A DNA stretch of 44,423 nt from positions 1 to 44,423 of the forward strand of contig NZ_VJWX01000008.1 of NCBI RefSeq assembly GCF_007713715.1, given 5' to 3'. Made by a program: the position numbers and the translations under genes. Positions within the stretch are counted from its first letter, which is position 1, and every line of letters starts with the position of its first letter. The notes beneath the pieces are model-generated. The model searched no databases, was not told where the DNA came from, and saw nothing but the letters and a program-made list of their open reading frames with translations. Positions 9,595 through 35,527 of this stretch are shown in pieces. This stretch comes from Amycolatopsis rhizosphaerae (GTDB taxonomy: Bacteria > Actinomycetota > Actinomycetes > Mycobacteriales > Pseudonocardiaceae).

Positions 9595-9872
9595 TGGCCG
9601 TCTCCGGATTTCGTCGATCTCTCCCACCGATCCACGAGCATTTTCCCCGGTTACACCCGGATCGCATGTCACCTCTTGTGTTGATCGCGTCACTACTACG
9701 ACCCTATTGGCCGCCGCATTGTTTTTTCGGTTACTTCAGCCGGGTTACACGAACGGAGCAGTCACGTGCCGCCAACGGTTGCGATCGGTAGCAGTCACCC
9801 GTGTAGCTATGCTCCAAACAGGCTGTCCGACTGCTTCGACCGGTCCCTGTTTCAGCGAGTGGAATCGTTGAT
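9595..9872. promoter_or_regulatory. Upstream region of the eight-gene operon with repeated GGTTAC(AC) sites
   Basis: A 278-bp gap between the first operon gene (start 9594, minus) and the GntR gene. The plus strand carries GGTTACAC at 9649-9656 and 9743-9750 and GGTTACTT at 9729-9736. The stretch 9715-9760 is less GC-rich than its surroundings. No confident -10/-35 pair can be chosen by eye. The short GntR protein encoded next door is the obvious candidate to bind here, but that is inference. Confidence 0.3.
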
Positions 9873-12139: not shown

Positions 12140-12504
12140 ACACCGACTCCCCGACGGCACCCGCCGACCCCATCTGGCGCAAGAGCAGCTACAGCACCGG
12201 TACCGGCAACTGCGTGGAAGTCGCCCCCACAGCCGATGGCGTGATCATCCGGCACAGCAAACACCCCGACGCCGGCACGATCACCTTCTCCTACCCTGCG
12301 TGGGCAGCGTTCGTCCGCGACGCATCCAATGGCGACCCCACCAGCGCAAACGGGGTCGCCAGCATCGCCAAGATCGGCACAGACACCGTGGTCGGGTCCC
12401 TCACCGCGGAGGTTGAACTTCGCTTCGACGAAGGCGAGTGGTCCGCCTTCCTCGCGGGAGCTGCCGACGCTGAGTTCGACTTCGGCGTCCAGGTCGCCGC
12501 CTGA
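12136..12504 (+). CDS. DUF397-domain protein
   Basis: 122 residues, ATG at 12136 overlapping the regulator's TGA. The DUF397 signature is in the first 60 residues: WRKSSYSTGTGNCVEVAP, then VIIRHSKHPDAGTITF and AWAAFVRDA. The usual domain is about 55 residues. Here some 55 more follow (TVVGSLTAEVELRFDEGEW and SAFLAGAADAEFDF), which look like a second degenerate copy of the final W..F element. DUF397 proteins are small partners of DUF5753 regulators and have also been proposed as antitoxin-like components. Acts in the cytoplasm. Confidence 0.85.
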   Translation: MNTDSPTAPADPIWRKSSYSTGTGNCVEVAPTADGVIIRHSKHPDAGTITFSYPAWAAFVRDASNGDPTSANGVASIAKIGTDTVVGSLTAEVELRFDEGEWSAFLAGAADAEFDFGVQVAA

Positions 12505-12852
12505 TCAGGACCGGGGGAGGCAACCCGACGCCGTTGCGGCAACGGCCTATCAGCGTGCTGCTAGGCCTGGCGTCCGGCAACGCCCGTGTTCTTGGGCGGA
12601 CGACAGTGGAATCAGCCTCCCGCCGGCGCCTTGGTTTCGCCACTACTGCAATACCATTGTCGGACGCGCTACCCGGGCCGTCTCGACGGTCTCGTTGCTG
12701 GTCTCGCTCGCGGTCTCGGCATGATGCCGCTTGAGAGCGCGGTCGAGTAACTTGGCCGGCCACCAATAGCAGCGCTAGCGGTGGGCAGGCCGCCACCGCA
12801 ACGGCCGAGAGCGCTCACTTACGCCGGTGATCAAGGCCCGGCATGATCTCGG
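12505..12852. other. Intergenic region without convincing gene; weak hairpin
   Basis: A 348-bp gap. Right after the DUF397 gene a small hairpin occurs: stem GCCGTTG (12530-12536), loop CGG, stem CAACGGC (12540-12546), without a T-run. A cluster of three GGTCTCG-like heptamers sits near 12688-12719. Codon composition of all open frames looks unnatural and I see no gene. Confidence 0.4.
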
Positions 12853-13041
12853 ATGGGTGAGCGCACGGGAAAGGGAAGCCGTATCGGACGGCATCGAGAC
12901 CGGAACCGGCTGGGCACCGACGAAGGTGCGCTGCAGTACGAGACGCCGACGGTGATCGAACTGGGTGGCGTGGTGGAGTTGACCAATGGCAGCGGGGAGG
13001 ACGAAGCCCGTCGCCGTCAGCGGCGAATTCAGCACCACTGA
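12853..13041 (+). CDS. RiPP precursor with lasso-type leader peptide
   Basis: 62 residues. Residues about 29-46 read YETPTVIELGGVVELTNG, which fits the lasso leader consensus Y..P.L...G.....T.G position by position (Tyr, Pro at +3, Gly at +9, Thr at +15, Gly at +17). In true lasso peptides this part is bound by the B1/RRE protein, and the core starts two residues after the Thr. Here the tail after the Thr is NGSGEDEARRRQRRIQHH. It begins with Gly, but Asp/Glu fall at positions 4-6, not at 7-9 as a lasso ring requires, and the rest is very basic. No B1, B2 or C (asparagine-synthetase-like) gene is present. It may be an orphan or decayed precursor, or one for another RiPP class with a similar leader. 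The start at 12853 is uncertain. Confidence 0.6.
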   Translation: MGERTGKGSRIGRHRDRNRLGTDEGALQYETPTVIELGGVVELTNGSGEDEARRRQRRIQHH

Positions 13042-13171
13042 TCACAACGTGTCCGTCGGCCCCGACTGGGACATCCTCATCGTCGGCCGCAGCGTCGCCG
13101 ACGTGGTCGACCCTGCCACCACAGCCGCCCGCATCGTCGAACTCGCTCACCGTACCGATAGGTTCCCGTGA
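12986..13171 (+). CDS. Small hypothetical protein between RiPP leader and GNAT remnant
   Basis: 61 residues. The C-terminal part reads VGPDWDILIVGRSVADVVDP and ATTAARIVELAHRT, a natural-looking alpha/beta stretch. The N-terminal part overlaps the RiPP precursor in another frame, so the true start may be the GTG near 13048. Its stop overlaps the start of the GNAT pseudogene (GTGA), as in a coupled operon. I do not recognise a family. Confidence 0.4.
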   Translation: MAAGRTKPVAVSGEFSTTDHNVSVGPDWDILIVGRSVADVVDPATTAARIVELAHRTDRFP

Positions 13172-13652
13172 ACGTCCGCCCCCTGCACCAAGACGACATC
13201 CCCGCCATCCTGGACCTGATGGAACTCGGCGCACCCTACGTCCGTACCCGCGCCGCCTCCGACTACTGGCTCTACGCCCACCTCTTCTCCACCACCTGCC
13301 CCGTTGCCGTGGACGAGGGCCAGCTCGCCGGCCCATCATCGCGTTCCGCAGCCAAGACCACCCCGACGACCGCTACGTTCAAGACGTCATCACCCATGCT
13401 GACCACCGACGCCGCGGCGCGGCATCTCCACCGCCCTGCTGAACTCCGTCCGCGAGGCGGGCAGCGCCTCGGCTGCCATCGCCTCTACCTCACCTCCGAA
13501 CCCGAGAACACCGCCGCACATCACACGTGGACTAGCCGAGGGATCACCAACGTCCCCGGCGACCAGCCGTGAACGGCATCGACGTCGTCTCCGACTACAA
13601 AGGCCCCGGCAAACACCGCGCCGTGTACGAGCTGCACCTGCCCTCAGCTTGA
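13168..13652 (+). pseudogene. GNAT-family acetyltransferase, broken by at least two frameshifts
   Basis: Begins at the GTG at 13168 with MNVRPLHQDDIPAILDLMEL and RAASDYWLYAHLFSTTCPVA. Continuity then needs a frame change near 13330, giving IIAFRSQDHPDDRYVQDVIT and HADHRRRG. The last block is the acetyl-CoA pyrophosphate loop (Q/R-x-x-G-x-G/A). Another change near 13400-13480 gives CHRLYLTSEPENTAAHHTWT, the usual late GNAT segment. A third near 13569 gives NGIDVVSDYKGPGKHRAVYE and the end LHLPSA at 13652. Put together this is a full-length GNAT enzyme (about 160 residues), but as sequenced it cannot be made. Decay or sequencing error are both possible. Confidence 0.65.
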
Positions 13653-13970
13653 GTCCCCACCGCGCGCCGAACTCGTCAACCCCCGCTCGGCCTCCGTTCG
13701 GTCGGGCCGGGCACGGTAGGTGGACAGGCTCGACAGGGTCCCCTCCGACCATGCTGGCGCCGCTTCTGGGGCATCGATGACAGTGACCGGCAGTAGGACC
13801 AAAGCTGTGAAGCCGAGCGTCTGCCCCAGTTTTCCGGGGACGGGCCGCGGACCTGCGTCGTCGACAGCCTCCTGCCAACGACGCTGCAGATCGGCCAGTA
13901 TCCCTACAGCACCCGCTTCGGGCGCGCCCACACCCGCTTCGCCACAAGTGCCTGGCAGACCGATGAGCAT
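13644..13970 (-). CDS. Doubtful small ORF
   Basis: 108 codons. The middle reads ILADLQRRWQEAVDDAGPRP and LGQTLGFTALVLLPVTVIDA, which is the most protein-like reading of this 670-bp stretch, but both ends look poor and no ribosome-binding site stands out. The region 13,980-14,320 holds no gene I can support. Confidence 0.22.
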   Translation of the reverse strand: MLIGLPGTCGEAGVGAPEAGAVGILADLQRRWQEAVDDAGPRPVPGKLGQTLGFTALVLLPVTVIDAPEAAPAWSEGTLSSLSTYRARPDRTEAERGLTSSARGGDSS

Positions 13971-14238
13971 CGATTAGGAGAGTCGACAGCGGGATATCCG
14001 TCGACGTTCTCAGGCAGTACGACAAACGGCGACGGACATGCCTAAAACCGACAGCAGCGACGCACGCCGTGCGGGTTATTGTTCACGGTGACAACAACGC
14101 ATTGCTGGTTTGAACCAACGGCTGGTCAACCACCTTTCGCGCTCTCGCATGAGCCGCATCGCCTAGTTCAGCACCAGGGAAGAGTTGTCCAGACGGGCGG
14201 GTACCTGCCCCGGCGGTCCAGGCACGCGGCAAATGGGT

Positions 14239-14253
14239 GTTACCACGAGTAAC
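14239..14253. promoter_or_regulatory. 15-bp dyad upstream of the pPIWI-RE operon
   Basis: GTTAC-CACGA-GTAAC is a perfect 5-bp inverted repeat with a 5-bp spacer, 69 bases before the first gene. About 150 bp further upstream, near 14078-14100, TTGTTCAC and GTGACAACAA form a second imperfect dyad. Either could be an operator, but such short dyads also occur by chance. I cannot choose promoter hexamers. Confidence 0.3.
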
Positions 14254-14321
14254 AAACTACCGCACTCTTGTGTGTGGTCACTAGAGTCCAACAGGGTGTT
14301 GTTGTAGTGACTGGGGAGCTC

Positions 14322-15953
14322 ATGACAGTTAACCCGTGGGTTGTTCCCGTTGGAATGGCCGGTTCTGACGGCTTGGTGCGAATCGGCACCGGAGCCGCCG
14401 ACGATGAGCTGCTTACATGCCCCTCCTACCTCGGCGTTAAGGTCCGTCCGAGGATTCGCTCGAGGCGACCGTCGTGGGCGCCAGCCGCTCAGTTCGAGAT
14501 GTTCACGCTTCAACCAGTCATGGCTGCACTTGACAGCGTCGAATACTGTCAACTCTCCGAGGATGCTGCTCTGGCAGAGATTGGACAGAGCGGCACGCCA
14601 CTCCACCCTGGGTTAATCAAGTTTGCACGCCACGCGGTGCACAACTTCTTGACCATTGGTTGCGAAGAAAAGGGATTGGAACCTGTTCCAGACTGGTGGG
14701 TCGTTCGCAAGACAAGTGCGCGCATCTGGGAACTCTATGGATGGGGGCGTCGCTACCAATCGACTGACGGTCGGCGTCGTGAATTTCGATTCCTACGGCT
14801 CGGTGAGGCTGCCAACCACCGACATGATCGCACAAAAACTGCGATCGCGGCTTATGTGACGGCGTTCGGCGTTCCAGCAGTATGGCCCGATCCATGGCGT
14901 GAGCCGTTCGACCTCCGTGAAGCTCGACCGGTAGATCATGCGCGGGTGGTGGAGGTAAGCCTGGCGAACGGGTCTGCCGATGTGCTATTCGACGGCACGC
15001 CTGCTGACGCCGAGGCCTATTACGCCGAGCATGGTCGGAGACGCGTAGCGTCCATCGCCGCTGGGGGACCGGCGCGCCCCGGCTCGTCATGCGCAGAGTG
15101 CAAACAGCTGACCAGCTGCGGGAGCTTGCCGCGTATTCCGGGCGTCCTGGCGTTACCAACGACGCGAGCGCCGATTCGCACCGTGTCGACGAGCGACCTG
15201 CGCTACCACCGGACATGCCCGGCCCAAGCCCACCTGCGGTCGCTCCACCTGCCACGCGCCTACGAATACGGTGCCGAAGCCGAGCTCGGTCACGCCGTTC
15301 ACGCCTGGCTTGAGGACGCGCACCGGGACGGCACGGCCTGCGATCCGGCGACAATGCCGACAGGAAAGACCGCTTGGTCTGCGGGCCGCTGGCGGGTCGA
15401 CGGCGACGCGGCACGGATCGGTGCCCGGATGCTGCGGCGACACATCGACGTCTGCGCCCTCCATCACTCCGACACGGTGACGCAGGTCCAGGTCGAGCCT
15501 CGTCTTGCGGTTCATGACACGGCGGCCCAGGCGGTCGTGCTTGCGAAGCCGGACATGATCTACATGGACGACGGCGGCTGGGTTTGGCGCGAGCTGAAAA
15601 CCACCCAGAAGGGGCGCTGGTTTCATGACGACCTCCTCGACGAGTTCCCGCAACTGGCCCTTGCTGTGTCATTCCTCGCTGAAGGAGCGCTAGGCGGCGA
15701 TGCCGCCATGGCCCGGGTCGAACTGGAGGTGCTGCGCCCGGAGGGCGCGGAGATCGATGTTATCGATCCGACCGACCCTGAACGGCTTGCCAAAGCACGC
15801 GAAGTACTACGGCGTCTCGCGCAGCCGTGGCGCGCTGACGAGACGTTCGAAGCTCGGCCGAGCAAAAACTGTCGGTGGTGTCCTGTATCTAGGTGGTGTC
15901 CGAGTTTCCCAGGCTCGGACCTACCTGACGAGGAGGACAGCGGCGCATGGTGA
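14322..15953 (+). CDS. Fe-S PD-(D/E)XK nuclease (RecB/Cas4-like) with a second cysteine-cluster half
   Basis: 543 residues from the ATG at 14322, preceded by GGGGAG; a TTG at 14268 and a GTG at 14307 are weaker starts. The C-terminal half (about 290-543) is a RecB/Cas4-type nuclease: Cys299 (YHRTCPAQ), His324 (GHAVHAWLED), Asp411 (LAKPDMIY), Glu424-x-Lys426 (RELKTTQ), then FPQLAL, and finally C517-x2-C520-x5-C526. The four cysteines should hold a 4Fe-4S cluster as in AddB and Cas4. The N-terminal half has a matching set, Cys33 (LLTCPSYL) and C257-x2-C260-x5-C266, with identical spacing. I see no HxxxD-ExK there, so it looks like a degenerate duplicate. The gene overlaps the next by seven bases (ATGGTGA) and is the first of a four-gene operon with a helicase and a PIWI protein. 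Likely role: DNA processing in an anti-invader system. Confidence 0.8.
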   Translation: MTVNPWVVPVGMAGSDGLVRIGTGAADDELLTCPSYLGVKVRPRIRSRRPSWAPAAQFEMFTLQPVMAALDSVEYCQLSEDAALAEIGQSGTPLHPGLIKFARHAVHNFLTIGCEEKGLEPVPDWWVVRKTSARIWELYGWGRRYQSTDGRRREFRFLRLGEAANHRHDRTKTAIAAYVTAFGVPAVWPDPWREPFDLREARPVDHARVVEVSLANGSADVLFDGTPADAEAYYAEHGRRRVASIAAGGPARPGSSCAECKQLTSCGSLPRIPGVLALPTTRAPIRTVSTSDLRYHRTCPAQAHLRSLHLPRAYEYGAEAELGHAVHAWLEDAHRDGTACDPATMPTGKTAWSAGRWRVDGDAARIGARMLRRHIDVCALHHSDTVTQVQVEPRLAVHDTAAQAVVLAKPDMIYMDDGGWVWRELKTTQKGRWFHDDLLDEFPQLALAVSFLAEGALGGDAAMARVELEVLRPEGAEIDVIDPTDPERLAKAREVLRRLAQPWRADETFEARPSKNCRWCPVSRWCPSFPGSDLPDEEDSGAW

Positions 15954-17113
15954 CTGCACGCCCGGCTGTGTCGGCGGTGTTCTTCGACGGCGAACCGCTG
16001 GTACGGATGATCGCGTCGGCGCTGTTCACGCTGTCACGCCAGCGTGCGCCGCGCAACCCTGTGTACGAGGACACGGTCCAGACCGCATTCAACCACCTGG
16101 TTCTGCGCTGCCTGCGCCATGATGTGCTGCCGCCGGCCAGCGTCCCTGACATGGTCTCGTGGGCTATGCACCGCCCATTGCACGAGTGGCCGCTCGGTTT
16201 GCCGGACGACCTAGACACCGCAGACGGTTTCCTGATCGACCCACAGACGCGCCTGCCGACCCAGCAGTGCCTCGAATGGGTGATCTCGGCTCCCGATCCG
16301 GCCGCGGAACAGTACGAGAACGAGGTCATGCTCGGCGTGATCCAGCAGTGCCGGGTCGCCCGGTCGCCGGAGTCCTACACGGCGTTCCGCCGCCTGCTGA
16401 TCACCCGCCCCGTCCTGACCGGCACTGAACTTGCTCTGCTGGGTGAGGACCTGGACCTGATGCTGCTGATCGACACCATCAAACGGTCCTACGAACCCGC
16501 TCCGGGGTCGTATCTGCGCGACGGACAGTATGCGCAGTGCGCCCGCTGCAAGTGTCTGCTCGTACCGATCGAGGGTGGCCGGTACCGGTGCGAATTGGAC
16601 CGATGCCGACGTGAGGGCTACCCGACGATCGAGCGCACGCTGGACCCTGCCCGCGGCAACGGCGTCTATCAGCTCAGCCGCCCGCTGCGGATGTTCATCA
16701 CAGGCCCAGGACTGGCCGAAACGGATCTGGAGCAAGACCTGATCAAGAAGAAGTTGCAGCCGGAAATGTGGCCGAACTTCGACGCCTACGACCTACGCAT
16801 CACGCTTCCAAACAAGCAGGTCTGGGCCATCGACGTGAAGGACCGCGCCAACCCTGCGCTACTCGCCCGCACCGCGCGTGCCTTCATTCCCGCGCCGCCC
16901 TACGACCAGGCCTTTCTGGTTGTACCGCAGTACCGGTTCGACGAGCGCGAAGCTTACGCACGGATCTTCGCCCGGCACGTCGCAGACGAGGTACGCGACC
17001 GAGTTCGCTTGACGTCGGATGCCGAGTTCCAGCGGGTACTGACACGCGAACTGCGCCGGATCCGGCGCATCACCACGGTCCACTCGACGGACGGGGGCTC
17101 CTCCAATGCGTGA
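15947..17113 (+). CDS. pPIWI-RE-associated restriction endonuclease (zinc ribbon + PD-(D/E)XK)
   Basis: 388 residues, ATG at 15947 behind GAGGAGG. The middle carries a zinc ribbon: C198-x2-C201 (also Cys203) and C215-x4-C220. The C-terminal part is a small restriction-type nuclease fold: RMFITGPGLAETDLEQDLIK (a helix with the conserved acidic residue), Asp282 in NFDAYDLRITLP, then Asp296-x-Lys298 in WAIDVKDRANPALL. This D..(D)xK arrangement is the catalytic core. The N-terminal 190 residues are helical and unassigned. It fits the REase that accompanies prokaryotic PIWI-RE proteins. It overlaps the helicase gene by eight bases and would act with it on invading DNA. Assignment is by motif and gene order only. 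Confidence 0.72.
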   Translation: MVTARPAVSAVFFDGEPLVRMIASALFTLSRQRAPRNPVYEDTVQTAFNHLVLRCLRHDVLPPASVPDMVSWAMHRPLHEWPLGLPDDLDTADGFLIDPQTRLPTQQCLEWVISAPDPAAEQYENEVMLGVIQQCRVARSPESYTAFRRLLITRPVLTGTELALLGEDLDLMLLIDTIKRSYEPAPGSYLRDGQYAQCARCKCLLVPIEGGRYRCELDRCRREGYPTIERTLDPARGNGVYQLSRPLRMFITGPGLAETDLEQDLIKKKLQPEMWPNFDAYDLRITLPNKQVWAIDVKDRANPALLARTARAFIPAPPYDQAFLVVPQYRFDEREAYARIFARHVADEVRDRVRLTSDAEFQRVLTRELRRIRRITTVHSTDGGSSNA

Positions 17114-20100
17114 TCGCAGCAGCTGGCACCGCCGCCTTGCCCGCCAGATCACTCCAGCCTGGCCAGCAACGCTGACCACCTTCACACCCGGCGACCTGAT
17201 GGACGTCGAGCTGGGCCTCTACTTGCTCGAGACCGTGATGCCCACCCGCACCGTCACCGACGCGTGGACCCTGTTTGGTGGCTACCCCTACAGCGAAGCA
17301 TTCGGAGATGTCCGCACCGACGCACAGCGGCACCGCATCCAGCGTGGCCGCCACTACCTGTGGAGCATGCGACGCCGCCGAGAGTGGCGAATGGCGGTGA
17401 CCGCCTATCTCACCGTGCCGGAGGAGGTGCGCGGGTACGACATCAAGGACCTTGACGCGGTGCCCGAGCGACGCACACCCTCTCGAGCCGCGACCCGCTT
17501 CTCCGTGTACGAGGACGTCCTCACATCGGCACCCCCGTTCGATCGCAAGCCGCTGCCCCTCGCTGACGTCGGCGAATACCGGTTCCCGGTGCGAGACCGC
17601 TCGTACTCGGTGACCTTCACCAACGACTTGGTGCCTGGCCCGCCGTCGCGGCCCCACGACCTCGACGCCCTGCCGCCAGGCGGTGGCACGCCCGTCGAGG
17701 TGACTTGGGAGCAGCTCGAACAGGCCGCCCAGGCGATGGACCGCATCGAGGCTGCCCACCCGGATCACAAGGCTCACGAGTGGGAGCGCCGGCTGGGGCG
17801 GGTCAAGCTGCTCGTCCGCGACGAAGCGCGCGGCGAGTTCGCCCCAAGCGACACCTTGCGCGTCGACGGGCTGCTCAATCTCGTCGGCATGGTCGGTGCT
17901 GGCAAGTCGACCCTGCGCGACATCCTCGCCTTCTGGGCCACCACCGACAAGGCCAAACCGCGGCGGATCACCATCGTGGTCGGCGACGTTGCAGAAGTCC
18001 TCACCGTCGTCCAGCAGTTCCGCGCGCTAGGCGTCGCCGCAGCCCCAATCCTCGGCCGATCCACCCGCGAGCGGAATATCGAACGTCTCCATCGGCGCAC
18101 CGCCACGGCTGGCGCCACGACCATGCTGGCGCACAACGACCCGAGCTTCGACTACCTCAGCAGCGCCTGCCCGCTTGACGCCTTACGTGGACTGGAAGCT
18201 CCGCGCCCACTCGGCATCGGCGAAGCACCCTGCGTGTCCCTCTACCCCGTCACCAAGCCTCGTACTAAGGCAACTGCGGCCGCGCTAGGCCGCGAGATAC
18301 TCGACGAGCCCGTTGCCGCTGAATCAGACGTCGAAGAAGAGCGGCCGAAGCGCCATGCTTGCCCGCTGTGGACGCGCTGCCCCCGGCATCACGGTGCACG
18401 CGACCTGGTTGACGCCACTATCTGGGTCGCCACCCCGGCCGGGCTCGTCCACAGCGGCATCCCGCAACACCTCCACGAGGAACGGCTCCGCTACCTTGAA
18501 CTCGCCTGCAGACTGAGCGACCTCGTCATCGTCGACGAGGCCGACCGCGTCCAAATGCAGCTCGACACTGCGTTCGCGCCGGCCACCACACTGGTGGGCC
18601 GTTCGCCGAATTCCTGGCTCGACGAGGTGTCTGCCCACAAAGTCACCGAGCTGGCCCGTCGCGGCCGGCTGCAACTCTCCGCCCGGGAGAACGACGACTG
18701 GGCCAACGCCACCGACACCGTCACAGCGGCGACCAACCGCCTCTACTCTCTGCTAATCCAGGACGCCGCCCTGCGCACGTGGATCACCGAGGACTATTTC
18801 AGCGCGCTCACCCTCCACCAATGGCTGATCAATGCCTGGTTTCCCGACACCGGCGACAACTCGCAAGACCCAGACGAGAACGTAGCGGCCGAACGCGACC
18901 AGCAGATCGCACGCATCGACCGCATCCTCGACCGCTTCCGCGACGACCCACTCCAGGAGCAATCCACCCTTACGCCGTCGGGCGAACCGGACGAGGATGC
19001 CGTCATCGTCAACCAGCTCGTCCATCTCGCGCTTGAGCTCCTGCACGCCCGGCGCGACTCGGCAACCCGAGAACGACTCCGCGATACCTTGCTCGCACTG
19101 CTTGGCGACAACGACCCCGTCGCCAGCAACATCGACGCCCACGTCACCAGGTTCGAATTCACGCTGATCTTGGCGGCTTTGCACCATCGGCTGAACTTGA
19201 TGACCACCCTATGGCCGCGCGTTGAGGCGGCCCTCAACCTCGAGGCGACGTCAAACGTACTGTCGCGGCGACCGCCCAAGGACTACGAACCAATCCTCCC
19301 GGAATCCCCGATGGGCAACGTTCTCGGATTCCAGTTCCAGCTCGGCGAGCGCAACCGCGACGGTGACCAGAGCGGGGAATTGCGGTTCTTCCGCTGCAGC
19401 GGCGTCGGCCGCGAACTGCTTCTACAGCTGCCACAGCTGCCGGCGATCGACAACCGGCCCGGCCCCAATGTCTTGCTGATGTCGGCGACCAGCTGGGCGG
19501 GTACCTCCAGCCGCTACCACGTCAACACCGATGTCGGCGCCGTCCTTCGTCCGCACGACGACGAAGTACGTCTCGTCCTCGAGTCCACGTTCCGCAAGGA
19601 GTTCCTCTACTGGCCGGGCTCCTCCACCCCGCTGCGTCTGTCCGGGTCCGATACCGAGACCCGCCCGCAAGTGCTCACACAGATGCTCCACCAGCTTGCG
19701 GTGCCAGACCGCAGCCTCGCTGACTCGACCAGCATGCTCGAACAAGAACTCACCGACATCGACGACCCCGATCGCCGGAGGATCCTCCTACTGGTCGGCA
19801 GCTACATCGAAGCCAAGCGCGCCGCCGAGTACCTCAACGCGATCCCCGAATGGACCGGGCGGATCACACTGCTCGTGTCCGACGATGCGGACCTCGACAA
19901 CGCCTGGCGCACACTCCCCAGCGACCCCTCGCTGCGGACCCTCAGCCGAGGTAACGTCGCCTCTTTCCCCGCCGAAGGCGGACAGATTCTCATCGCGCCG
20001 CTGCTGGCCGTGGAACGTGGCCACAACATCGTCGTCCCCGGCGGTAAGGCGGCGATCGGCAGCGTGTACTTCCTCGCCCGACCGCACCCGCGCCCTGACG

Positions 20101-20579
20101 ACATCGCCTTGGCGATCCAAGCGATCAACGACTGGGCAGTACGCCAGGTTCGCGGACCCGAGGGGGGCTTCCGGCAGCTGGCACTCGCCGCCGGCACGCC
20201 TGACCTTGCCGGACTGGCCTTCCGTCGCGAAGCGCGCAAGAAGTGGAATCGCTTCTTGACCAGGCAACTGTCGTGGACAAGCCTGCCCCCAGAAGAGAAG
20301 GTCGCTTTCACCTGGGACCAGCTCGTCGTGATGTGGCAGGTCATTGGCCGCCTTGTTCGCGGTGGAGTCGAGGCCCGCGTCGTCTTCGTCGACGCAGCGT
20401 TCTCTCCGCGGGAAGCTGGGCTGAATGCCGTCGACACGCCGGACACCAGCCTCCTTGCGAGCATGCGTTCCATCCTCGATCCGTACTTCACTCCGGACTC
20501 CACGTTGCCGGATATCGACAAATCGCTCGTCGTCGCGCTGTACGAACCGCTGTACCGCGCCCTCGCCGATATGGACTAA
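17106..20579 (+). CDS. DinG/XPD-like Fe-S superfamily 2 helicase of a pPIWI-RE system
   Basis: 1,157 residues, ATG at 17106. An N-terminal region of about 240 residues with no known motif precedes the ATPase. Walker A is GMVGAGKST (261-269). Four cysteines follow, C355, C376, C419 and C425, placed between motifs I and II as in the Fe-S domain of DinG/XPD. Motif II is VIVDEADRV (Asp477-Glu478-Ala-Asp480). The second RecA domain carries LLLVGSYIEAKRAAEYL and motif VI QVIGRLVRGG (from residue 1078). A long acidic insertion lies between. DinG-type helicases are one of the three core partners of pPIWI-RE proteins. The role would be unwinding DNA or R-loops for the PIWI protein and nucleases. It is separated from the PIWI gene by only 36 bp. 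Confidence 0.82.
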   Translation: MRDRSSWHRRLARQITPAWPATLTTFTPGDLMDVELGLYLLETVMPTRTVTDAWTLFGGYPYSEAFGDVRTDAQRHRIQRGRHYLWSMRRRREWRMAVTAYLTVPEEVRGYDIKDLDAVPERRTPSRAATRFSVYEDVLTSAPPFDRKPLPLADVGEYRFPVRDRSYSVTFTNDLVPGPPSRPHDLDALPPGGGTPVEVTWEQLEQAAQAMDRIEAAHPDHKAHEWERRLGRVKLLVRDEARGEFAPSDTLRVDGLLNLVGMVGAGKSTLRDILAFWATTDKAKPRRITIVVGDVAEVLTVVQQFRALGVAAAPILGRSTRERNIERLHRRTATAGATTMLAHNDPSFDYLSSACPLDALRGLEAPRPLGIGEAPCVSLYPVTKPRTKATAAALGREILDEPVAAESDVEEERPKRHACPLWTRCPRHHGARDLVDATIWVATPAGLVHSGIPQHLHEERLRYLELACRLSDLVIVDEADRVQMQLDTAFAPATTLVGRSPNSWLDEVSAHKVTELARRGRLQLSARENDDWANATDTVTAATNRLYSLLIQDAALRTWITEDYFSALTLHQWLINAWFPDTGDNSQDPDENVAAERDQQIARIDRILDRFRDDPLQEQSTLTPSGEPDEDAVIVNQLVHLALELLHARRDSATRERLRDTLLALLGDNDPVASNIDAHVTRFEFTLILAALHHRLNLMTTLWPRVEAALNLEATSNVLSRRPPKDYEPILPESPMGNVLGFQFQLGERNRDGDQSGELRFFRCSGVGRELLLQLPQLPAIDNRPGPNVLLMSATSWAGTSSRYHVNTDVGAVLRPHDDEVRLVLESTFRKEFLYWPGSSTPLRLSGSDTETRPQVLTQMLHQLAVPDRSLADSTSMLEQELTDIDDPDRRRILLLVGSYIEAKRAAEYLNAIPEWTGRITLLVSDDADLDNAWRTLPSDPSLRTLSRGNVASFPAEGGQILIAPLLAVERGHNIVVPGGKAAIGSVYFLARPHPRPDDIALAIQAINDWAVRQVRGPEGGFRQLALAAGTPDLAGLAFRREARKKWNRFLTRQLSWTSLPPEEKVAFTWDQLVVMWQVIGRLVRGGVEARVVFVDAAFSPREAGLNAVDTPDTSLLASMRSILDPYFTPDSTLPDIDKSLVVALYEPLYRALADMD

Positions 20580-20615
20580 CCGCCAGCCGCAGCGCAACCG
20601 AGAGAGACCAGCATC

Positions 20616-23417
20616 GTGGCCTATAACGAAATCCAGCAAGCCGCCTTCGTCCCGAACCCCGAGGTCGAGAGTTTTACCCGCCCCCTGCACACCCTTGCCT
20701 TTCCCGCGACCTGGCGTGAGCCGATCATCAACCTCTACGCCCACGGCAGGTCTGAGGCTGCCCGAGTCAAGATCAAGAGCGTGCCGATCCGGCGGCTCAA
20801 CAGCCTCATGCGCGCCGTTGCCCCCGACCTGATCACCGTGGACGGCCCGACGACTTTCGACGAGAACAAGCCCTGGCTCTACGCTGACGCCCCTTACCCT
20901 CAGGCCGTGCTCGACAGCATGATTCACGCCTGGCTTCGGAACATGCAACCCAGCAACGAGGCCTACCCCTTATTCCGTGAGACCGTCCGCGCACTGTCCA
21001 CTCATGCGCTGACATGGCAGATCGAGAACGTCGACCTCCGGGCCCAAGATATCTCCCCCGGGGGCACAGCCCTGCCCCACGATCGCCTCTACCGCCTCGT
21101 CCCGGAGATCCTCGCTGACCGTATCGCACAACTCGACCCCTACGAACACGCCGGCAAGCAGCTCCTGTTCCACCGTGTCGCCGTTGACGCTCGAGCCAAT
21201 GGTGCCGAGCTGATGTCCTGGCCTCCGCTCGAACACCCCACCAAAGGCCAAAACGGTGTAAAGATCGCCTACTACTCTGCGGTCATTCGCGTCGCGCTAC
21301 GCACCGTGCCGTTCTCGCCAACGCCACGAGTGCACATCAGCACCGGTGTCCGCCGGTGGGTCAGCGGGCGCGTCTACTTCCCAGGAAAGAACGGCGTTTC
21401 GACCTACTTACTTACCAATGAGCCTCTCGTCCCCGACGGCACCCGGCCCCATCGATTCGCCGTCGCCTCGCTCGTCTGGGATCGCAAGTCTCGTAAGACC
21501 GTGTGGCGCCAAGGCGGGCCCGAGGGGCTGCTCAACCAGGTCTCTGCGCTCGACAACCTGCCCTCGCCGGACGTCTTCGCCAAGGAACCCGACGCCTGGA
21601 TCCACGGCCGCGACGGCATCACAGCAGCGGTCGCGTTCCACAGTCGTATGAAATGGCACCCCGTCGGGACCGGGCTCATGCCCAGCGAACGCCGCCGGCT
21701 GACCGAATGGGCTGCACAAGCGCTCACCCCCGAGTTCATCTGGGCCCCGCCGCTGCACCGAAGCGAGATCAAGCAAAACCCCGCTCGCGCGTTGGAGAAG
21801 AACGTCCCGGTCAGCAAGGACGCTACCGACGTCGAACGAGCACAAGCACACCTGGACAACGCCGCAGTGAACAGCCGCAACGCCGAAAAGCGGCGTGTCC
21901 TGGCGGCCGCGACCAATGACAACCTCGTGAGCGCTGTGCTGCTTCACCAGACCAGCACCATGCGCCAGCACGTCCTGGACGCAGTCGAATCGAGTCTCGG
22001 GCTGGCGGAACATCGATGCGCAACCGGACCGGAACTCTGGTCTTGGGAAGCTCCAGAACTCAGCGTCCGGCTGCACGTACGTCCCCTCGGCGCCCTGGGG
22101 GCGCCGCTGGGGAACGGGGACAAACCGCCCCGCCGCGGACAAGAATTCGACGATGCCATCCGACAACGACGCGACCAGGTCTCAACGACGGTCACGGACC
22201 TGTGCGACAGCCTCGCCGAACGCCCACCGCTCGTCCTCATCGAACTCGAGGGACCCGACCGATTCCAACAGCCCAGAACCGATCCCAAGTTTGCGATCCG
22301 GCTCGGCTGCGCCGACGCCGGCACCGTCACCCAGTTTTTTCGACCTCCCAGCACAGAACCCGACGACGAGGACGATGCTGGATTTCGCGCAGCCGCCGCT
22401 TGGGGAGACGGCATGCGACAGCTCGGTATGCGCTTCGTCCCCCAGCACACGCTCGGCGAGGCGATCCCGGATCAGCTCAACCAGCTCGCGTTCTGGCTGG
22501 TCAAACGCCGTGTGGACGGCCCGACCCAAAACGCGCAGTTCACCCCGGTCGCGGTCCTGATCCGTCCTGGCCAGAACTGCATCATGGGCCGTACGGCGAG
22601 CATGTCGGAATGGGTTCCGTATCCCGAGCTGCTCAAGAGTCTCACCGGCCAGATCCGCCCCGACACTTTGAAGACTGACTACGAGCAGGCCGCGGCCACC
22701 GCCGCGTTCGTCAAGAACATCCTCTACCAGATGAAGAGCAAGCCCACTCTCGTCGTCACCCATGCACAAAACACCCGTAACCGCTGGCCCTGGCTACAGA
22801 ACGGCGGCCTCGTCATCGACCGGATCCAAGTCGGGGCAGCTAACACCCAACGCATCGCCGCTTACGGGAAGCAGTTACGTATCGTGCGTATCGCAACCGG
22901 AGACCGCGACGAAACTGCACAGTGGTGGGCACCCAAATCCGGAGGAAGCGGCGGCATCTCCAAAGGCCTCTGGCGGCTCCAACCGTCCGACGACCGGCAC
23001 CGCGTCTTCTACAGCACAACCGACAAAGCGAGCACCCACCCACTCGCAGTAGACGCCACGAAGCTAACCCCGCGAATCACCACGGCCGGTAAGCCAGACA
23101 TCAAGCCAGCGAAGAACGCGTGGAACCCGGACCTGCTCGAGTTGTCGATCGCAGGACTCCAACCGGGAGACAGCCCTGAGACGTGGGCGATGTTCTTGCA
23201 CCAGCAGAGGTTCTCCGAAGACTATCGCGATGGACTCGGGCTTCCGCTGATCCTGCACCTAGCGGAACTTACATCCCATTACGCACTGCCTCATGGTGAG
23301 GAGCTCGATGGCGATGTCATAGACGAGGCAGAAGACAGCGACGAGCCAAATGAAAAGGACGATGCAGCAGTAGATGAGTCCGACCCGTCTGAGGCACGAG
23401 ATCGCCGCAGAAGCTGA
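20616..23417 (+). CDS. Prokaryotic PIWI protein, pPIWI-RE family (DUF3962/DUF3893-like)
   Basis: 933 residues from a GTG at 20616 with GAGAGAGA about ten bases upstream. The N-terminal half has the layout of the module once called DUF3962 (YNEIQQAAFVPNPE at the start, later ARANGAELMSWPPLEHPT). The C-terminal 300 residues have an RNase-H-like PIWI layout: KPTLVVTHAQNTRNRWPWLQ, then LRIVRIATGDRDETAQWW, with Arg755/Arg758 and Glu766 as candidates for the conserved R and E that name the family, then DLLELSIAGLQPGD and FLHQQRFSEDYRDGLGLPLI. The acidic tail (DEAEDSDEPNEKDDAAVDES) is unusual. The family lacks the standard PAZ domain and is linked to a DinG-like helicase and an REase. It probably uses a nucleic-acid guide against plasmids or phages. 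Confidence 0.8.
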   Translation: MAYNEIQQAAFVPNPEVESFTRPLHTLAFPATWREPIINLYAHGRSEAARVKIKSVPIRRLNSLMRAVAPDLITVDGPTTFDENKPWLYADAPYPQAVLDSMIHAWLRNMQPSNEAYPLFRETVRALSTHALTWQIENVDLRAQDISPGGTALPHDRLYRLVPEILADRIAQLDPYEHAGKQLLFHRVAVDARANGAELMSWPPLEHPTKGQNGVKIAYYSAVIRVALRTVPFSPTPRVHISTGVRRWVSGRVYFPGKNGVSTYLLTNEPLVPDGTRPHRFAVASLVWDRKSRKTVWRQGGPEGLLNQVSALDNLPSPDVFAKEPDAWIHGRDGITAAVAFHSRMKWHPVGTGLMPSERRRLTEWAAQALTPEFIWAPPLHRSEIKQNPARALEKNVPVSKDATDVERAQAHLDNAAVNSRNAEKRRVLAAATNDNLVSAVLLHQTSTMRQHVLDAVESSLGLAEHRCATGPELWSWEAPELSVRLHVRPLGALGAPLGNGDKPPRRGQEFDDAIRQRRDQVSTTVTDLCDSLAERPPLVLIELEGPDRFQQPRTDPKFAIRLGCADAGTVTQFFRPPSTEPDDEDDAGFRAAAAWGDGMRQLGMRFVPQHTLGEAIPDQLNQLAFWLVKRRVDGPTQNAQFTPVAVLIRPGQNCIMGRTASMSEWVPYPELLKSLTGQIRPDTLKTDYEQAAATAAFVKNILYQMKSKPTLVVTHAQNTRNRWPWLQNGGLVIDRIQVGAANTQRIAAYGKQLRIVRIATGDRDETAQWWAPKSGGSGGISKGLWRLQPSDDRHRVFYSTTDKASTHPLAVDATKLTPRITTAGKPDIKPAKNAWNPDLLELSIAGLQPGDSPETWAMFLHQQRFSEDYRDGLGLPLILHLAELTSHYALPHGEELDGDVIDEAEDSDEPNEKDDAAVDESDPSEARDRRRS

Positions 23418-23451
23418 ATCCCACAGGTGCCTGGGGGAGCCGAAGTCCCAG

Positions 23452-23637
23452 ATGCGCGAGCTCACCGGACAAGCCGCCGGCGCGTTCGGCTACGGCGTCG
23501 GGCATCTGCAGCGCGAGCGGGCATATCTCGCTGAGTTGGCCAACCGCTTGAACGAGGCGCTGGGTAAGATCACCAAGAGTGACCATGTGGCCACAGGCAT
23601 CCTCAATCAAGCGACCAGTGACAGTGAGGTTCTTTGA
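23452..23637 (+). pseudogene. 3' fragment of an ESX/WXG-like gene at the island boundary
   Basis: The frame ending at the TGA at 23635-23637 reads AGAFGYGVGHLQRERAYLAE, then LANRLNEALGKITKSDHVAT and LNQATSDSEVL. It closely matches the C-terminus of the ESX-like product at 25478-25923 (AGAFGYGIGHLQRERAYLDE, LVQRLNNALGKIAESAHAAT). The N-terminal two thirds present in the other copy are missing here: upstream of about 23450 the sequence is the end of the PIWI gene instead. So the gene was cut when the pPIWI-RE operon arrived, or by a deletion. The stop overlaps the DUF3558 start (TGATG), as in the second copy. Confidence 0.7.
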
Positions 23638-24266
23638 TGATCCGGGCTTCGCACATCGGGCTGCTGGTGTTGGCGGCCGTGATTCTCGCCGGTTGCAGTC
23701 CTGGAAGTGGCGTCCCCCGGCCGTCATCGGGGGCGTCATCCTCCGCGACTACGTCGACCGCAAGCAGCGCGGTCCCCTACGCCGGGGCGCCAAAGGTGGC
23801 CAATCCGCTGCCGGTGTCCACGCTGTCCGGCGACCCGTGCGCGGATGGGTTGACCGCCGATCAGACGAAGACTGTCTTCGGCCAGGTAGAGAGCGGCCAG
23901 CGGAAGGACGATCCCGTCCTCGGGTCGAACTGCGAATGGAGCAATCCCGACACGGGTGCTTTGCTGTCGGTCACCTACGACTCGACACATGACGGATTGA
24001 GTTCCGTCTACCGCGGTAACAAGCCGCGAGCCATCGTGTGGCACGAGACCTCTATCCAGGGCTTCCCCGCGGCCGCCCACCTAACGAATCTCAGCGGCCC
24101 CAAAGACACGTTCTGCGTCGTCAGTGTCGGCATCGCTGACAGTGCTTCGGTCGACATCGGCCTCACGCTCAGCCGGGCGAAGGTGGGCAAGAGTGATCCC
24201 TGCGCGGTGAACACCCAGATCGCGGACATGGTCATCGGGAATCTGAGGCAGAAGGCGGGTTCGTGA
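23637..24266 (+). CDS. DUF3558 lipoprotein, copy 1
   Basis: 209 residues from the ATG at 23637 (TGATG overlap with the ESX remnant). Lipoprotein signal: RASHIGLLVLAAVILAGC, with the lipobox LAGC, then a Ser/Thr-rich linker. The mature domain contains GDPCADGLTADQTKTVFGQV, SNCEWSNPDTGALLSVTY, FCVVSVGIADSASVDIGL and KVGKSDPCAVNTQIADMVIG, with four Cys that could form two disulfides. This is the DUF3558 fold, abundant in Pseudonocardiales and mycobacteria and usually next to small ESX-type genes. Exposed on the outer face of the membrane. Function unknown, perhaps linked to type VII secretion. Confidence 0.82.
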   Translation: MIRASHIGLLVLAAVILAGCSPGSGVPRPSSGASSSATTSTASSAVPYAGAPKVANPLPVSTLSGDPCADGLTADQTKTVFGQVESGQRKDDPVLGSNCEWSNPDTGALLSVTYDSTHDGLSSVYRGNKPRAIVWHETSIQGFPAAAHLTNLSGPKDTFCVVSVGIADSASVDIGLTLSRAKVGKSDPCAVNTQIADMVIGNLRQKAGS

Positions 24267-24385
24267 TGGGCATGTTCGACTGGCTTGGTGATGCGGCGAA
24301 CGCTGTGGTGCACGGCGTCGAGGACGCCGCTGAGTGGGTCGGCGACCGCGTCGAGGATGTCGAGCACTGGTTCGGTACCGCGTGA
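24266..24385 (+). CDS. 39-residue N-terminal fragment of a type VII secreted effector
   Basis: Starts at the ATG at 24266, overlapping the DUF3558 stop (TGATG). It reads GMFDWLGDAANAVVHGVEDA, then AEWVGDRVEDVEHWFGTA and a TGA at 24383-24385. Amphipathic helices of this kind (FDWLGDA...V...V.D...W.GD..ED) open many actinobacterial T7SS-secreted toxins of several hundred residues. Here the frame ends early and the following 500 bp are disordered debris, so it is probably a truncated effector. It could instead be a genuine small peptide. Confidence 0.5.
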   Translation: MGMFDWLGDAANAVVHGVEDAAEWVGDRVEDVEHWFGTA

Positions 24386-24506
24386 TCGGAAAGACTCATC
24401 ACTTCCCGGCCGGAACCGACAGGCCCGGCCTTGAACCGTTCGTCGCCTGCGGCAACCACTCCCAGCACAACACTGCGCTCGAACTCCCTACCGCCGAGGT
24501 CAGGCC

Positions 24507-24590
24507 TTGTGATTCCAGGGCTGGCACGGCCAATGCGGCTGGAAGCCAGGTCTAGCGAGTCACGGTCGCCATCCCGCTGCGGGGCCAGCC
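24507..24590. repeat. Copy B of the diverged ~85-bp duplicated segment
   Basis: Aligns with 1561-1646. The stretch 24386-24900 otherwise holds no intact gene; it appears to be made of short decayed pieces. The shared piece translates in one frame to FQGWHGQCGWK, with RVTVAI in the other frame after a small gap, as in copy A. Confidence 0.4.
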
Positions 24591-24909
24591 TTCAAGCCCG
24601 GTCTCCGCACGCCACGACTGATTGCTCGTTATCGCGTCCTGGCGCTCTACTGGATCCGCGTGACCAGGTCAGTGGCCTGAACGTCGTCTCGCCGGTCACA
24701 CAGCCTGTAGTCCGGCGCGTTGTGTTTGCCCTGCTCTCGCTGCTGCAGGCGGCAGTGCGATTGATCCAGATCTGCACAGCCGAACTGCTGCCTTCCGCCA
24801 GGTGGCGAAGTGGTCTGCTTCATCGGCCACGATCACACCGGCCACGCGTCCTCGCTGCATAGGTGCTGCAGCTTCTCGACACGTTCGGAGTGCGCTAGAA
24901 AGCCCGACC

Positions 24910-25260
24910 TACAAGCCGGATTGGGATCTGTCCGGCGGCACGGCCGAAGCGAATAAACCTCCCAGCGCGGCCGCTGAGCGGGAACTGCGGGAGGAGCTTG
25001 GCCTCGATATCGCTGTCGGCCGCCTCCTGTGCCTGGACTGGGTGTTGCCGCACGGCCCCTCGGACGACACACTGATGTTCGTCTTCGACGGCGGCACCCT
25101 CGACGACGAAGCGGTCGCGAAGCTGCGGATCCACGATGACGAGATCGGCCAGTTGGCCTTCGTGTCCGTGTCTGAGGCTCGGACACTCCTGCGCCCGTAT
25201 GTGTGGGACCGGCTCAACAGAGCCGTGCAGGCCCGCAGCACGGGAATGGCCTTCACCGTG
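24910..25260 (+). pseudogene. Nudix hydrolase remnant with altered Nudix box
   Basis: The frame from about 24910 reads YKPDWDLSGGTAEANKPPSA, AAERELREELGLDIAVGRLL, then FVFDGGTLDDEAVAKLRIHD and VWDRLNRAVQARSTGMAF. The Nudix box G-x5-E-x7-REUxEExGU is present (RELREELGL), except that the first Glu is Lys (GGTAEANK). The N-terminal strand that should precede it is missing; upstream sequence is unrelated. Downstream of about 25260 the frame runs on without homology. Probably inactive. Nudix enzymes hydrolyse nucleoside-diphosphate-linked compounds. Confidence 0.6.
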
Positions 25261-27203: not shown

Positions 27204-27423
27204 CTCGCGCGCGGGGCCACGCCGCCCCAGCCATGTAAGCGCTCGGCTGCAGGCGCTGCACGCGGCTCAGGACTGGTGGCGCCGCCGGGAGGACTGGCAT
27301 GCGCGATGATGTTCTCGTGACGCACCGGCTGCTGCAGACTGTGTGCGGCGTGTTCGGACGGCGCGCAGGGGCTCGCGCTGGGCGTCCAACCTTCATCGTT
27401 GAGTGAGCCTCGTAAGGAGCCTT

Positions 27424-35338: not shown

Positions 35339-35527
35339 CTGAGAAGCTGGGCTGCACTCACGCACGATCTCCGCTGGGCCACCCCGCATTACGACTACTC
35401 CATCTCCTTACCGTGGCCACTCGCGGTCGCCAAGCAAATCGCTCAGTACGTCATGCCCCTAGACCTCCTCGACGATGTTGACGAAATCGAGGCGGACATT
35501 TCATCACCCGTCGATGACGGGAACTAG
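35339..35527 (+). CDS. Probable small ORF with frameshifted or non-standard start
   Basis: From just after the preceding stop to the TAG at 35525-35527 one frame reads WAALTHDLRWATPHYDYSIS, LPWPLAVAKQIAQYVMPLDL and LDDVDEIEADISSPVDDGN. This looks like real, acidic protein. The only starts are a CTG at 35339 or internal codons. An ATG at 35335 overlapping the previous stop is one base out of frame, so a single indel near 35350 would give a normal coupled start. It is followed at once by a strong hairpin. Confidence 0.4.
   Translation: MRSWAALTHDLRWATPHYDYSISLPWPLAVAKQIAQYVMPLDLLDDVDEIEADISSPVDDGN

What the first reader, a model, noticed from the sequence alone, without database searches (positions are those of the whole stretch)
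14322..23417. Four-gene pPIWI-RE operon with an added RecB/Cas4-like Fe-S nuclease
A prokaryotic PIWI-RE-like protein, a DinG/XPD-like Fe-S helicase and a zinc-ribbon PD-(D/E)XK REase match the three-gene core proposed for pPIWI-RE systems. Here they are preceded, with a seven-base overlap, by a 543-residue Fe-S nuclease. Two nucleases, a helicase and a PIWI protein in one transcript could acquire, load and cut with a nucleic-acid guide. A Cas4-like enzyme hints at guide or end processing. Wet data on this family are few.
Basis: partly seen in the sequence, partly recalled or inferred. Interest (0 to 1): 0.92.

Follow-up and report, generated by a model that had tools for sequence, protein, structure and literature searches.

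The report
Four-gene pPIWI-RE defence operon
An actinomycete carries an intact four-gene set, probably an immune system against plasmids and phages, built around a relative of the RNA-interference protein PIWI; the fourth gene, an iron-sulfur nuclease thought to be an oddity here, is a regular part of one branch of these systems and already has a database model.

Summary
Window 14322-23417 encodes four intact co-directional genes: an Fe-S PD-(D/E)XK nuclease, a Y/zinc-ribbon/REase protein, a DinG-type helicase and a pPIWI-RE protein, all matching curated models far above cut-off. The nuclease is not special to this genome: PADLOC-DB models it (PprPDDEXK, E 1.9e-106), and it heads the operon in 80 of the 80 closest helicase loci (best 80 of 272, all actinomycete). 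In less selected samples it precedes 34 of 71 Streptomyces and 20 of 41 Pseudonocardiaceae near-full-length pPIWI-RE copies. On a helicase tree it needs one change. New detail: the nuclease looks like two fused Fe-S nuclease-like domains, each with a conserved C...CX2CX5C set, only the second with an active site. The window PIWI has His where the second catalytic Asp belongs, so 'cut with a guide' by PIWI is unlikely here; a few relatives may still cut. Best reading: a non-slicing PIWI senses a guide-target hybrid or R-loop, the helicase opens DNA, two nucleases destroy it. Whether the Fe-S nuclease trims guides or degrades target is open. Known kind, unusually testable.

The parts
14238..14254 (.). 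perfect inverted repeat TGTTAC-N5-GTAACA, possible operator of the operon
   Evidence: only exact copy in the window; at up to 2 mismatches 2 found, 0.24 expected, 5 of 100 shuffles reach 2; both arms kept in L023 with a changed spacer at the same distance from the start; exact form upstream of the nuclease in 2 of 81 loci only, window included
14322..15953 (+). PprPDDEXK: Fe-S PD-(D/E)XK nuclease, 543 aa
   Evidence: PADLOC PDLC02423 1.9e-106, Pfam PDDEXK_1 4.9e-26; AlphaFold2 model mean pLDDT 91.4
14322..15146 (+). N-terminal half of the nuclease (residues 1-275): predicted degenerate Fe-S nuclease-like domain, C33 + C257/C260/C266, no catalytic Lys
   Evidence: conservation; secondary-structure order; weak profile match to the C-terminal half
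15162..15917 (+). C-terminal half of the nuclease (residues 281-532): intact domain, H334 D411 E424 K426 Q444 and C299 + C517/C520/C526
   Evidence: each invariant in 81 of 81, window included; VIA-align Z 13.1 to AdnA, 11.7 to ACE1
15947..17113 (+). PprRE: Y domain, zinc ribbon (C198 C201 C215 C220) and REase domain, 388 aa
   Evidence: Pfam pPIWI_RE_Y 2.3e-44 and pPIWI_RE_REase 3.9e-34; four Cys at 1.00, D296 in 80 of 81 and K298 in 79 of 81
17106..20579 (+). PprDinG: Z domain plus DinG/XPD-type Fe-S helicase, 1157 aa
   Evidence: Pfam pPIWI_RE_Z 4.3e-46, PADLOC PprDinG 8.8e-255; K267, D477, E478, R1082 and C355/C376/C419/C425 in 81 of 81
20616..23417 (+). PprPIWI: X, MID and RNaseH/PIWI domains, 933 aa, predicted not to cut
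   Evidence: Pfam 1.8e-100, 1.7e-28, 1.1e-66; Argonaute fold, best Z 15.9 to Siwi; no acid on strands 622-631 and 711-716
14227..23399 (+). block of 90% DNA identity shared with Amycolatopsis thailandensis L023 while nothing else in the two stretches aligns: the unit that moved
35348..35524 (+). 59-codon C-terminal remnant of a second, different pPIWI-RE protein
   Evidence: 94.9% identical to the PIWI of L230; Pfam RNaseH_pPIWI_RE 1.6e-10

Best explanation
A horizontally mobile, four-gene pPIWI-RE system for interference with invading DNA. Shown here: gene content, order, conservation, kept active-site residues of helicase, REase and C-terminal nuclease domain, and replacement of at least one PIWI cutting residue. 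Inferred: the MID-PIWI protein holds a short guide strand (or grips an R-loop) as a sensor and does not cut; the DinG-type helicase is recruited and unwinds the hybrid or translocates on the DNA; the zinc-ribbon REase cuts the DNA; the Fe-S nuclease works on the single strands or ends so made. Its catalytic domain is closest to the nuclease of the actinobacterial end-resection enzyme AdnAB and, in the next tied group, to the Argonaute partner ACE1, so I commit to DNA-end processing, with target degradation slightly ahead of guide trimming. Its N-terminal half is predicted to be a catalytically dead copy of the same fold that keeps an Fe-S site and would serve to bind DNA or partners.
For: Curated-model matches for all four. 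Nuclease, REase and helicase in the same order and strand in 80 of 80 best loci, PIWI visible in 79 (L051 ends before it; L074 ends inside it). RE-DinG overlap of 8 bases in 76 of 81. Nuclease-partner distances correlate r 0.94-0.95, core pairs 0.95-0.96, 80 loci, permuted maximum 0.10. One 9.2 kb block at 90% DNA identity with unrelated flanks. Patchy presence: 35 of 246 Streptomyces and 22 of 200 Pseudonocardiaceae genomes with a strong nuclease match. H334, D411, E424, K426, Q444 and the Cys sets in 81 of 81 (C33 80 of 81). PIWI: His at the second catalytic place in the window and in 64 of 79 readable rows; Argonaute fold. Nuclease fold: AdnA Z 13.1, rmsd 4.4, 223 aligned; ACE1 Z 11.7, rmsd 4.0, 232 aligned. 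Defence-like surroundings: type I R-M 27403-33538, NACHT protein 40272-44036, second pPIWI-RE remnant. Hybrid-directed restriction was proposed for the three-gene form (PMC3702460, passages and section 7).
Against: No experiment in the papers read shows defence by any pPIWI-RE system; the one studied member (Pseudomonas stutzeri) cuts DNA with RNA guides, and its deletion raised ciprofloxacin sensitivity and affected cell division, read by its authors as a role in replication (PMC10991935, passages). About half of the near-full-length pPIWI-RE copies lack the nuclease, so it is not needed for the core function. Relatives of the nuclease occur without PIWI. Of 90 close pairs with enough flank, 82 share some upstream flank too and only 7 share the four genes and no flank. 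The place of the first catalytic Asp is uncertain: if it is D634, just past the first strand and acidic in 54 of 80, then 6 of 80 relatives have acids at both places and may cut. The clade-wide claim of a dead PIWI is thus weaker than the claim for the window protein.
Confidence: 0.5

Rival explanations
1. Guide maker: the Fe-S nuclease trims RNA or DNA fragments into guides for the PIWI protein, as ACE1 is said to do for its Argonaute.
For: Catalytic domain resembles ACE1 over 232 residues (Z 11.7); gene is first in the operon and inherited with PIWI.
Against: About half of pPIWI-RE loci do without it; PIWI-free relatives of the nuclease exist; AdnA, a DNA-end resection enzyme, ranks higher. 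The guide-processing role of ACE1 is recalled; searches for that paper in the library found nothing.
Confidence: 0.25
2. Host replication or repair helper: the four proteins resolve R-loops or replication-transcription conflicts and are not an immune system.
For: DinG-type helicases act on R-loops (cited in PMC3702460), and deletion of the P. stutzeri PIWI-RE gene affected cell division and ciprofloxacin sensitivity (PMC10991935).
Against: Patchy distribution (35 of 246, 22 of 200 genomes), transfer as a block, remnants of other copies and defence-gene neighbours are unlike a housekeeping pathway.
Confidence: 0.15
3. The nuclease is a separate neighbouring defence gene that merely travels with the three-gene core.
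For: Related nucleases occur without PIWI, some in a trio with a PIN-like and an IrrE-like protein.
Against: Directly upstream in 80 of 80 best loci, distance correlation as tight as within the core, single change on the tree.
Confidence: 0.1

Closest known systems
PADLOC-DB 2.0.0 Ppr models (PprPDDEXK, PprRE, PprDinG, PprPIWI)
   Same: All four window proteins match over nearly the whole length of the profiles (nuclease residues 54-530, profile 14-445 of 449).
   Different: No difference was found; the models carry no description of how the nuclease works. PADLOC's rule for calling the system was not seen.
Three-gene pPIWI-RE island of Burroughs, Iyer and Aravind 2013 (PMC3702460)
   Same: REase first, DinG-type helicase, then pPIWI-RE, overlapping or close genes; X, MID, RNaseH, Y, Z domains.
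   Different: A fourth gene, the Fe-S nuclease, comes before the REase; the words Cas4, RecB and fourth do not occur in the paper's main text.
PsPIWI-RE of Pseudomonas stutzeri (PMC10991935)
   Same: Same family by name; gene beside a DinG helicase and a nuclease gene. Its sequence was not compared here.
   Different: It cuts and needs D525 and D610; the window protein has His at the inferred D610 place.
ACE1, Argonaute-associated Cas4-family protein (PDB 9iab, 9iac)
   Same: Fold of the catalytic domain, tie to a PIWI-domain protein.
   Different: The ACE1 chains have 266-269 residues, one domain's worth, with a cyanobacterial Argonaute as partner (pairing recalled); here two fused domains are predicted and the partner is pPIWI-RE with helicase and REase.
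AdnA nuclease domain of mycobacterial AdnAB
   Same: Best structural match of the catalytic domain (Z 13.1) and the only PDB sequence matches of its profile (best E 0.0037).
   Different: AdnA carries its own UvrD-type motor; here the motor would be a separate DinG-type helicase.

Membership tests
pPIWI-RE protein family | X, MID and RNaseH_pPIWI_RE domains | tested here: met
   Pfam 1.8e-100, 1.7e-28, 1.1e-66
pPIWI-RE protein family | conserved arginine and glutamate that name the family | tested here: met
   window has R758 and E842; R in 78 and E in 73 of 80 rows, one row cut short; which R and E are meant was inferred from spacing in PsPIWI-RE (R639, E718), not from an alignment with it
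pPIWI-RE protein family | catalytic aspartates (kept only in a subset of the family, so not required) | tested here: not met
   second place is His716 in the window; acid there in 8 of 79 readable rows. First place uncertain: no acid at 622-632, D634 just beyond
three-gene pPIWI-RE island | REase, then DinG helicase, then PIWI, same strand, tightly spaced | tested here: met
   overlap 8, gap 36; Y, Z and REase models
PADLOC Ppr set with PprPDDEXK | nuclease of the PprPDDEXK model beside the other three | tested here: met
   1.9e-106, adjacent gene; PADLOC's own system rule was not available
CRISPR Cas4 | match to a Cas4 model and cas1/cas2 context | tested here: inconclusive
   Cas4 models 0.0094 and 0.03 only; no cas genes among the window proteins scanned, but not every ORF was scanned
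ACE1 (Argonaute-associated Cas4 family) | fold of the catalytic domain | tested here: met
   Z 11.7, rmsd 4.0, 232 aligned, 13% identity; tied with 3l0a, AddA and others
ACE1 (Argonaute-associated Cas4 family) | partner is a canonical Argonaute (recalled) | tested here: not met
   partner is pPIWI-RE
ACE1 (Argonaute-associated Cas4 family) | processes guides of its partner (recalled) | not testable with these tools
   needs biochemistry
active Fe-S PD-(D/E)XK nuclease | H, D, E-x-K, Q motifs and four Cys (motifs recalled) | tested here: met
   all in 81 of 81
tandem Fe-S PD-(D/E)XK protein | N-terminal half has the same fold | tested here: inconclusive
   same order of predicted elements (score 275 against shuffled mean 188, best of 60 shuffles 241); hhalign E 8e-4 but probability 25% and only the last third, global mode nothing; no Pfam family over cut-off, no PDB match by sequence below E 1
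anti-phage or anti-plasmid defence system | interference shown in cells | not testable with these tools
   no experiment

The most novel reading that the evidence does not exclude
A PIWI counterpart of type I CRISPR: a non-cutting PIWI protein with a guide marks the target and recruits a split helicase-nuclease, in which the DinG-type motor feeds DNA to a fused pair of Fe-S nuclease domains, one dead and one active (recalled parallel: RecBCD, where RecC keeps a dead nuclease fold beside active RecB), so that guided recognition leads to processive destruction and not to a single cut.
Probability: 0.2. Interest if true: 0.85.

Novelty: new member of a known kind. Interest (0 to 1): 0.48.

Why it matters
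What pPIWI-RE systems do has been open since they were proposed in 2013. This branch offers a clean way in: a compact operon with close relatives in dozens of named actinomycete strains, three enzymes whose active sites can be killed one at a time, a sensor that probably cannot itself cut, and a natural comparison set of sister systems without the nuclease. If the nuclease proves to make guides, it would name the missing step of guide supply; if it degrades targets, it would join PIWI recognition to a resection enzyme.

Tried and rejected
Rejected: chance or misannotation (curated matches). Rejected: nuclease unique to this genome. Rejected: a frameshift in the helicase of L230 and L231, suspected from two HMM pieces; one 1117-codon frame is open in each. 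Dropped before the co-location count: four Streptomyces nuclease places (E 6e-5 to 8e-4, in open frames of 1134-1227 aa) and two Pseudonocardiaceae ones (E 3e-4 and 8e-4), taken as other nuclease proteins.

Led nowhere: viral contigs with the nuclease alignment (47 pattern matches, none a relative); phages with the window nuclease or a Nostoc PIWI query (none); Rfam over 12000-25000 (none); promoter and terminator scans (0 promoters, 1.4 expected; 3 terminator-like sites, 5.4 expected); PDB by sequence with PIWI (none) and with the whole nuclease (only designed proteins over about 34 residues, judged spurious); tRNA scan (0); NCBIfam (no model for the four; one 0.16 match to the helicase). A global-mode hhalign of the two nuclease halves gave nothing (probability 0.1). 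A search for the downstream DUF3558 gene in 19 genomes of the genus, meant to find an empty site, gave scattered paralogues and was not followed.

Literature searched: PIWI-RE (13 papers hold the whole word), pPIWI-RE spellings and PprPIWI, pPIWI-RE with DinG and nuclease, DUF3962/DUF3893, PADLOC with PIWI and DinG, Argonaute with Cas4. No paper on the four-gene form or its nuclease was recognised, judging by listings and passages; supplements were not read. Seen: PMC3702460 abstract, passages and section 7; PMC10991935 and PMC6299218 passages; PMC9252829, PMC10653904, PMC12948488, PMC12988326, PMC10853773, PMC7641849 passages that bore little on the question. Preprints and most subscription journals are not held.

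Full report
WHAT IS THERE. Four genes lie head to tail on the + strand: nuclease 14322-15953, REase protein 15947-17113, helicase 17106-20579, PIWI protein 20616-23417. All four match curated models, best E per protein 1.9e-106, 2.7e-79, 8.8e-255 and 8.5e-201 in PADLOC, with Pfam in agreement. The own genome (7.67 Mb, 896 contigs) has one match to the nuclease model and two to RNaseH_pPIWI_RE, the intact gene and a 38-position fragment, all in this window.

IS THE FOURTH GENE AN ADDITION? No. PADLOC-DB 2.0.0 holds a PprPDDEXK model beside PprDinG, PprPIWI and PprRE. I scanned one genome for each of 84,980 species with a helicase alignment: 272 relatives, of which the tool keeps the best 80. 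By their titles all 80 are actinomycetes (two are metagenome bins; L049 and L083 come from one strain). All 80 have nuclease, REase and helicase in the same order and strand; 79 also show PIWI, while in L051 the contig ends before it and in L074 inside it. This set is chosen by likeness to the window helicase and says nothing about frequency.

The draws overlap with the 80 loci. Streptomyces, 246 genomes: 88 PIWI places, 71 near full length (span of at least 200 of 288 positions), 34 of these with the nuclease 6.1-7.2 kb upstream on the same strand; 35 strong nuclease places (E under 1e-40), 34 paired, and the other on a contig of the same length as that of L074, where PIWI runs off the end. 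Pseudonocardiaceae, 200 genomes: 48 PIWI places, 41 near full length, 20 with the nuclease; 23 strong nuclease places, 20 paired, 3 in genomes without any PIWI match. Genomes with both / nuclease only / PIWI only / neither: 35/0/35/176 and 19/3/18/160. In 396 genomes across the phylum, PIWI was found in 6, and the nuclease in 3 of these 6 and nowhere else. So the nuclease is nearly always with pPIWI-RE, and about half of the pPIWI-RE loci in these two groups have it.

ONE BRANCH. On a quick tree of 106 helicases (82 with, 24 without the nuclease) the label changes once, on a branch with SH-aLRT 99. The rows were not drawn at random, the program warns of many long branches, and the root is unknown, so gain and loss cannot be told apart. 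Loci without the nuclease in the fetched stretch include three-gene sets on Nostoc, Calothrix, Tolypothrix, Azospirillum and Streptomyces plasmids and the 17 I looked at of the 58 near-full-length places without nuclease from the two draws.

A UNIT THAT MOVES. Window 14227-23399 aligns at 90.0% to Amycolatopsis thailandensis L023, and nothing else in the 44 kb window aligns to its 23 kb at E 1e-5. The shared block begins 95 bases before the nuclease start and ends six codons before the PIWI stop. Just inside it is a palindrome TGTTAC-N5-GTAACA (14238-14254) whose arms, not its spacer, are kept in L023; its exact form was not found in the 200 bases upstream of the nuclease in the other 79 loci. 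Against a sharp general unit: of 113 close pairs, 90 have over 3 kb of flank on both sides; 7 of these share the four genes and no flank, 79 share no downstream flank, 82 share some upstream flank, often about 5 kb in the 45 rows printed. Distances between the nuclease and each partner correlate at 0.94-0.95 over 80 loci, core pairs at 0.95-0.96; shared descent of whole loci alone would give this too.

THE NUCLEASE. Among 81 sequences, window included, H334, D411, E424, K426 and Q444 never vary, nor do C299, C517, C520, C526: an intact Fe-S nuclease of the AddB/Cas4/RecB type (type recalled; fold matches). A second set, C33 (80 of 81) and C257, C260, C266 (81 of 81), has the same C...CX2CX5C form in the N-terminal half; both sets are also kept in the two plasmid relatives. 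The predicted model (mean pLDDT 91.4) shows, by my reading, the same order of helices and strands in both halves, with C33 and C299, and C257 and C517, at matching elements; a simple alignment of the two strings scores 275 against 188 +/- 18 for 60 shuffles of element order, best 241. At the place that I match with the catalytic Lys the N-terminal half has Arg 40, Trp 35, other 6 of 81, never Lys. Sequence evidence is weak: hhalign probability 25-36%, E 4e-4 to 8e-4 for a single comparison, over the last third only; a reversed control gave 0.4% and global mode nothing; none of 34 members matched a Pfam family better than 0.03. I take the two-domain reading as likely, not shown. C340, H374 and C378 are also invariant and unexplained.

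THE PIWI PROTEIN. The model (pLDDT 88.0) aligns over its length with Argonautes and PIWI proteins (Siwi Z 15.9, rmsd 5.1, 518 aligned). The two strands taken to carry the catalytic Asp residues are 622-631 and 711-716; the window reads NQLAFWLVKR and TLVVTH there. At 716 the rows have His 64, Asp 4, Glu 4, other 7, and one is cut short. At 627-632 there is an acid in 17 of 80, together with an acid at 716 in none. But D634, three residues past the strand, is acidic in 54 of 80, and if that is the first Asp then 6 of 80 (L041, L042, L045, L046, L047, L052: Actinoplanes and Micromonospora) have both. Of 17 nuclease-free actinomycete relatives, 14 have Asp and 1 Glu at 716, none an acid at 627-632, 5 an acid at both 634 and 716. 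The studied P. stutzeri protein needs D525 and D610 (PMC10991935, passages); its sequence was not at hand, so both places rest on strand order and spacing. The window protein most likely cannot cut; for the clade this holds for most, not all, members. Loss of PIWI cutting beside added nucleases is a known pattern for prokaryotic Argonautes (PMC6299218, passages).

OTHER ENZYMES. Helicase: K267, D477, E478, D480, Q1078, R1082 and four Cys in 81 of 81. REase: zinc-ribbon Cys 1.00, D296 in 80 and K298 in 79 of 81.

A SIDE BRANCH OF THE NUCLEASE. On plasmids of Rhodococcus antarcticus and Streptomyces albidoflavus a relative (31% and 27% identical to the window nuclease) sits with a 265-268 aa protein (PIN_4 match of 9e-4 in one, below cut-off) and a convergent IrrE-type metallopeptidase; the same trio lies in L236, whose genome has no PIWI match. 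The chromosomes of the two plasmid hosts were not searched for PIWI. Two more relatives in genomes without PIWI (L234; L235, a contig of 8 kb) show no match to the trio partners. So the nuclease can serve without PIWI, which leans slightly against a pure guide-making role.

MECHANISM. See Best explanation. Steps shown: genes, order, co-inheritance, residues. Steps inferred: guide or R-loop sensing (proposed for the three-gene form in PMC3702460), recruitment, cutting by two nucleases, target of the system.

VERDICT. Kind known, mechanism open; the details (two Fe-S domains, His in the PIWI active site, PIWI-free nuclease trio) were not seen in the listings and passages searched.

Noticed in passing
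window 35348-36709: A 59-codon tail of a second, different pPIWI-RE protein (94.9% identical to L230) followed by a 95.6% identical copy of the gene that follows PIWI in L230 (391 aa, no Pfam match): a second pPIWI-RE locus seems to have been almost wholly replaced by the block to its left.
   Followed up: partly
L018 12094-15665, L019 11992-15694, L236 7556-11128: Recurring trio without PIWI beside it: PprPDDEXK-like nuclease, 265-268 aa protein (weak PIN match in one), convergent IrrE/CapP-like metallopeptidase; possible separate defence module.
   Followed up: partly
two genome draws: pPIWI-RE pieces (span under 200 of 288 positions) are common: 17 in 14 of 246 Streptomyces and 7 in 7 of 200 Pseudonocardiaceae genomes; some may be parts of one gene or contig ends.
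   Followed up: no
window 27403-33538: Type I restriction-modification genes (M, S, R) downstream of the operon.
   Followed up: no
window 34325-35338: 337-aa protein without Pfam or PADLOC match between the R-M genes and the PIWI remnant.
   Followed up: no
window 1739-9693, minus strand: Cluster with two tRNA-synthetase class Ib-like proteins, glycosyltransferase-like, HAD and alcohol-dehydrogenase-like genes; may be a biosynthetic cluster.
   Followed up: no
window 23634-24266 and 25923-26558: Two DUF3558 proteins, 73% identical, just after the operon.
   Followed up: no
window 40272-44036: 1254-aa NACHT protein with a weak match (8.5e-4) near its N-terminus to a PADLOC model named Aga_REase-TIR.
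   Followed up: no
L028 2100-7059 and like Streptomyces loci: About 5 kb upstream of the operon, with an AAA/helicase-like gene and two genes without Pfam match (794 and 291 aa), is shared with the operon among many of the Streptomyces loci.
   Followed up: partly
nuclease residues C340, H374, C378: Three more residues invariant in 81 of 81 nucleases, outside both Fe-S sets and the active site; possibly another metal site.
   Followed up: no
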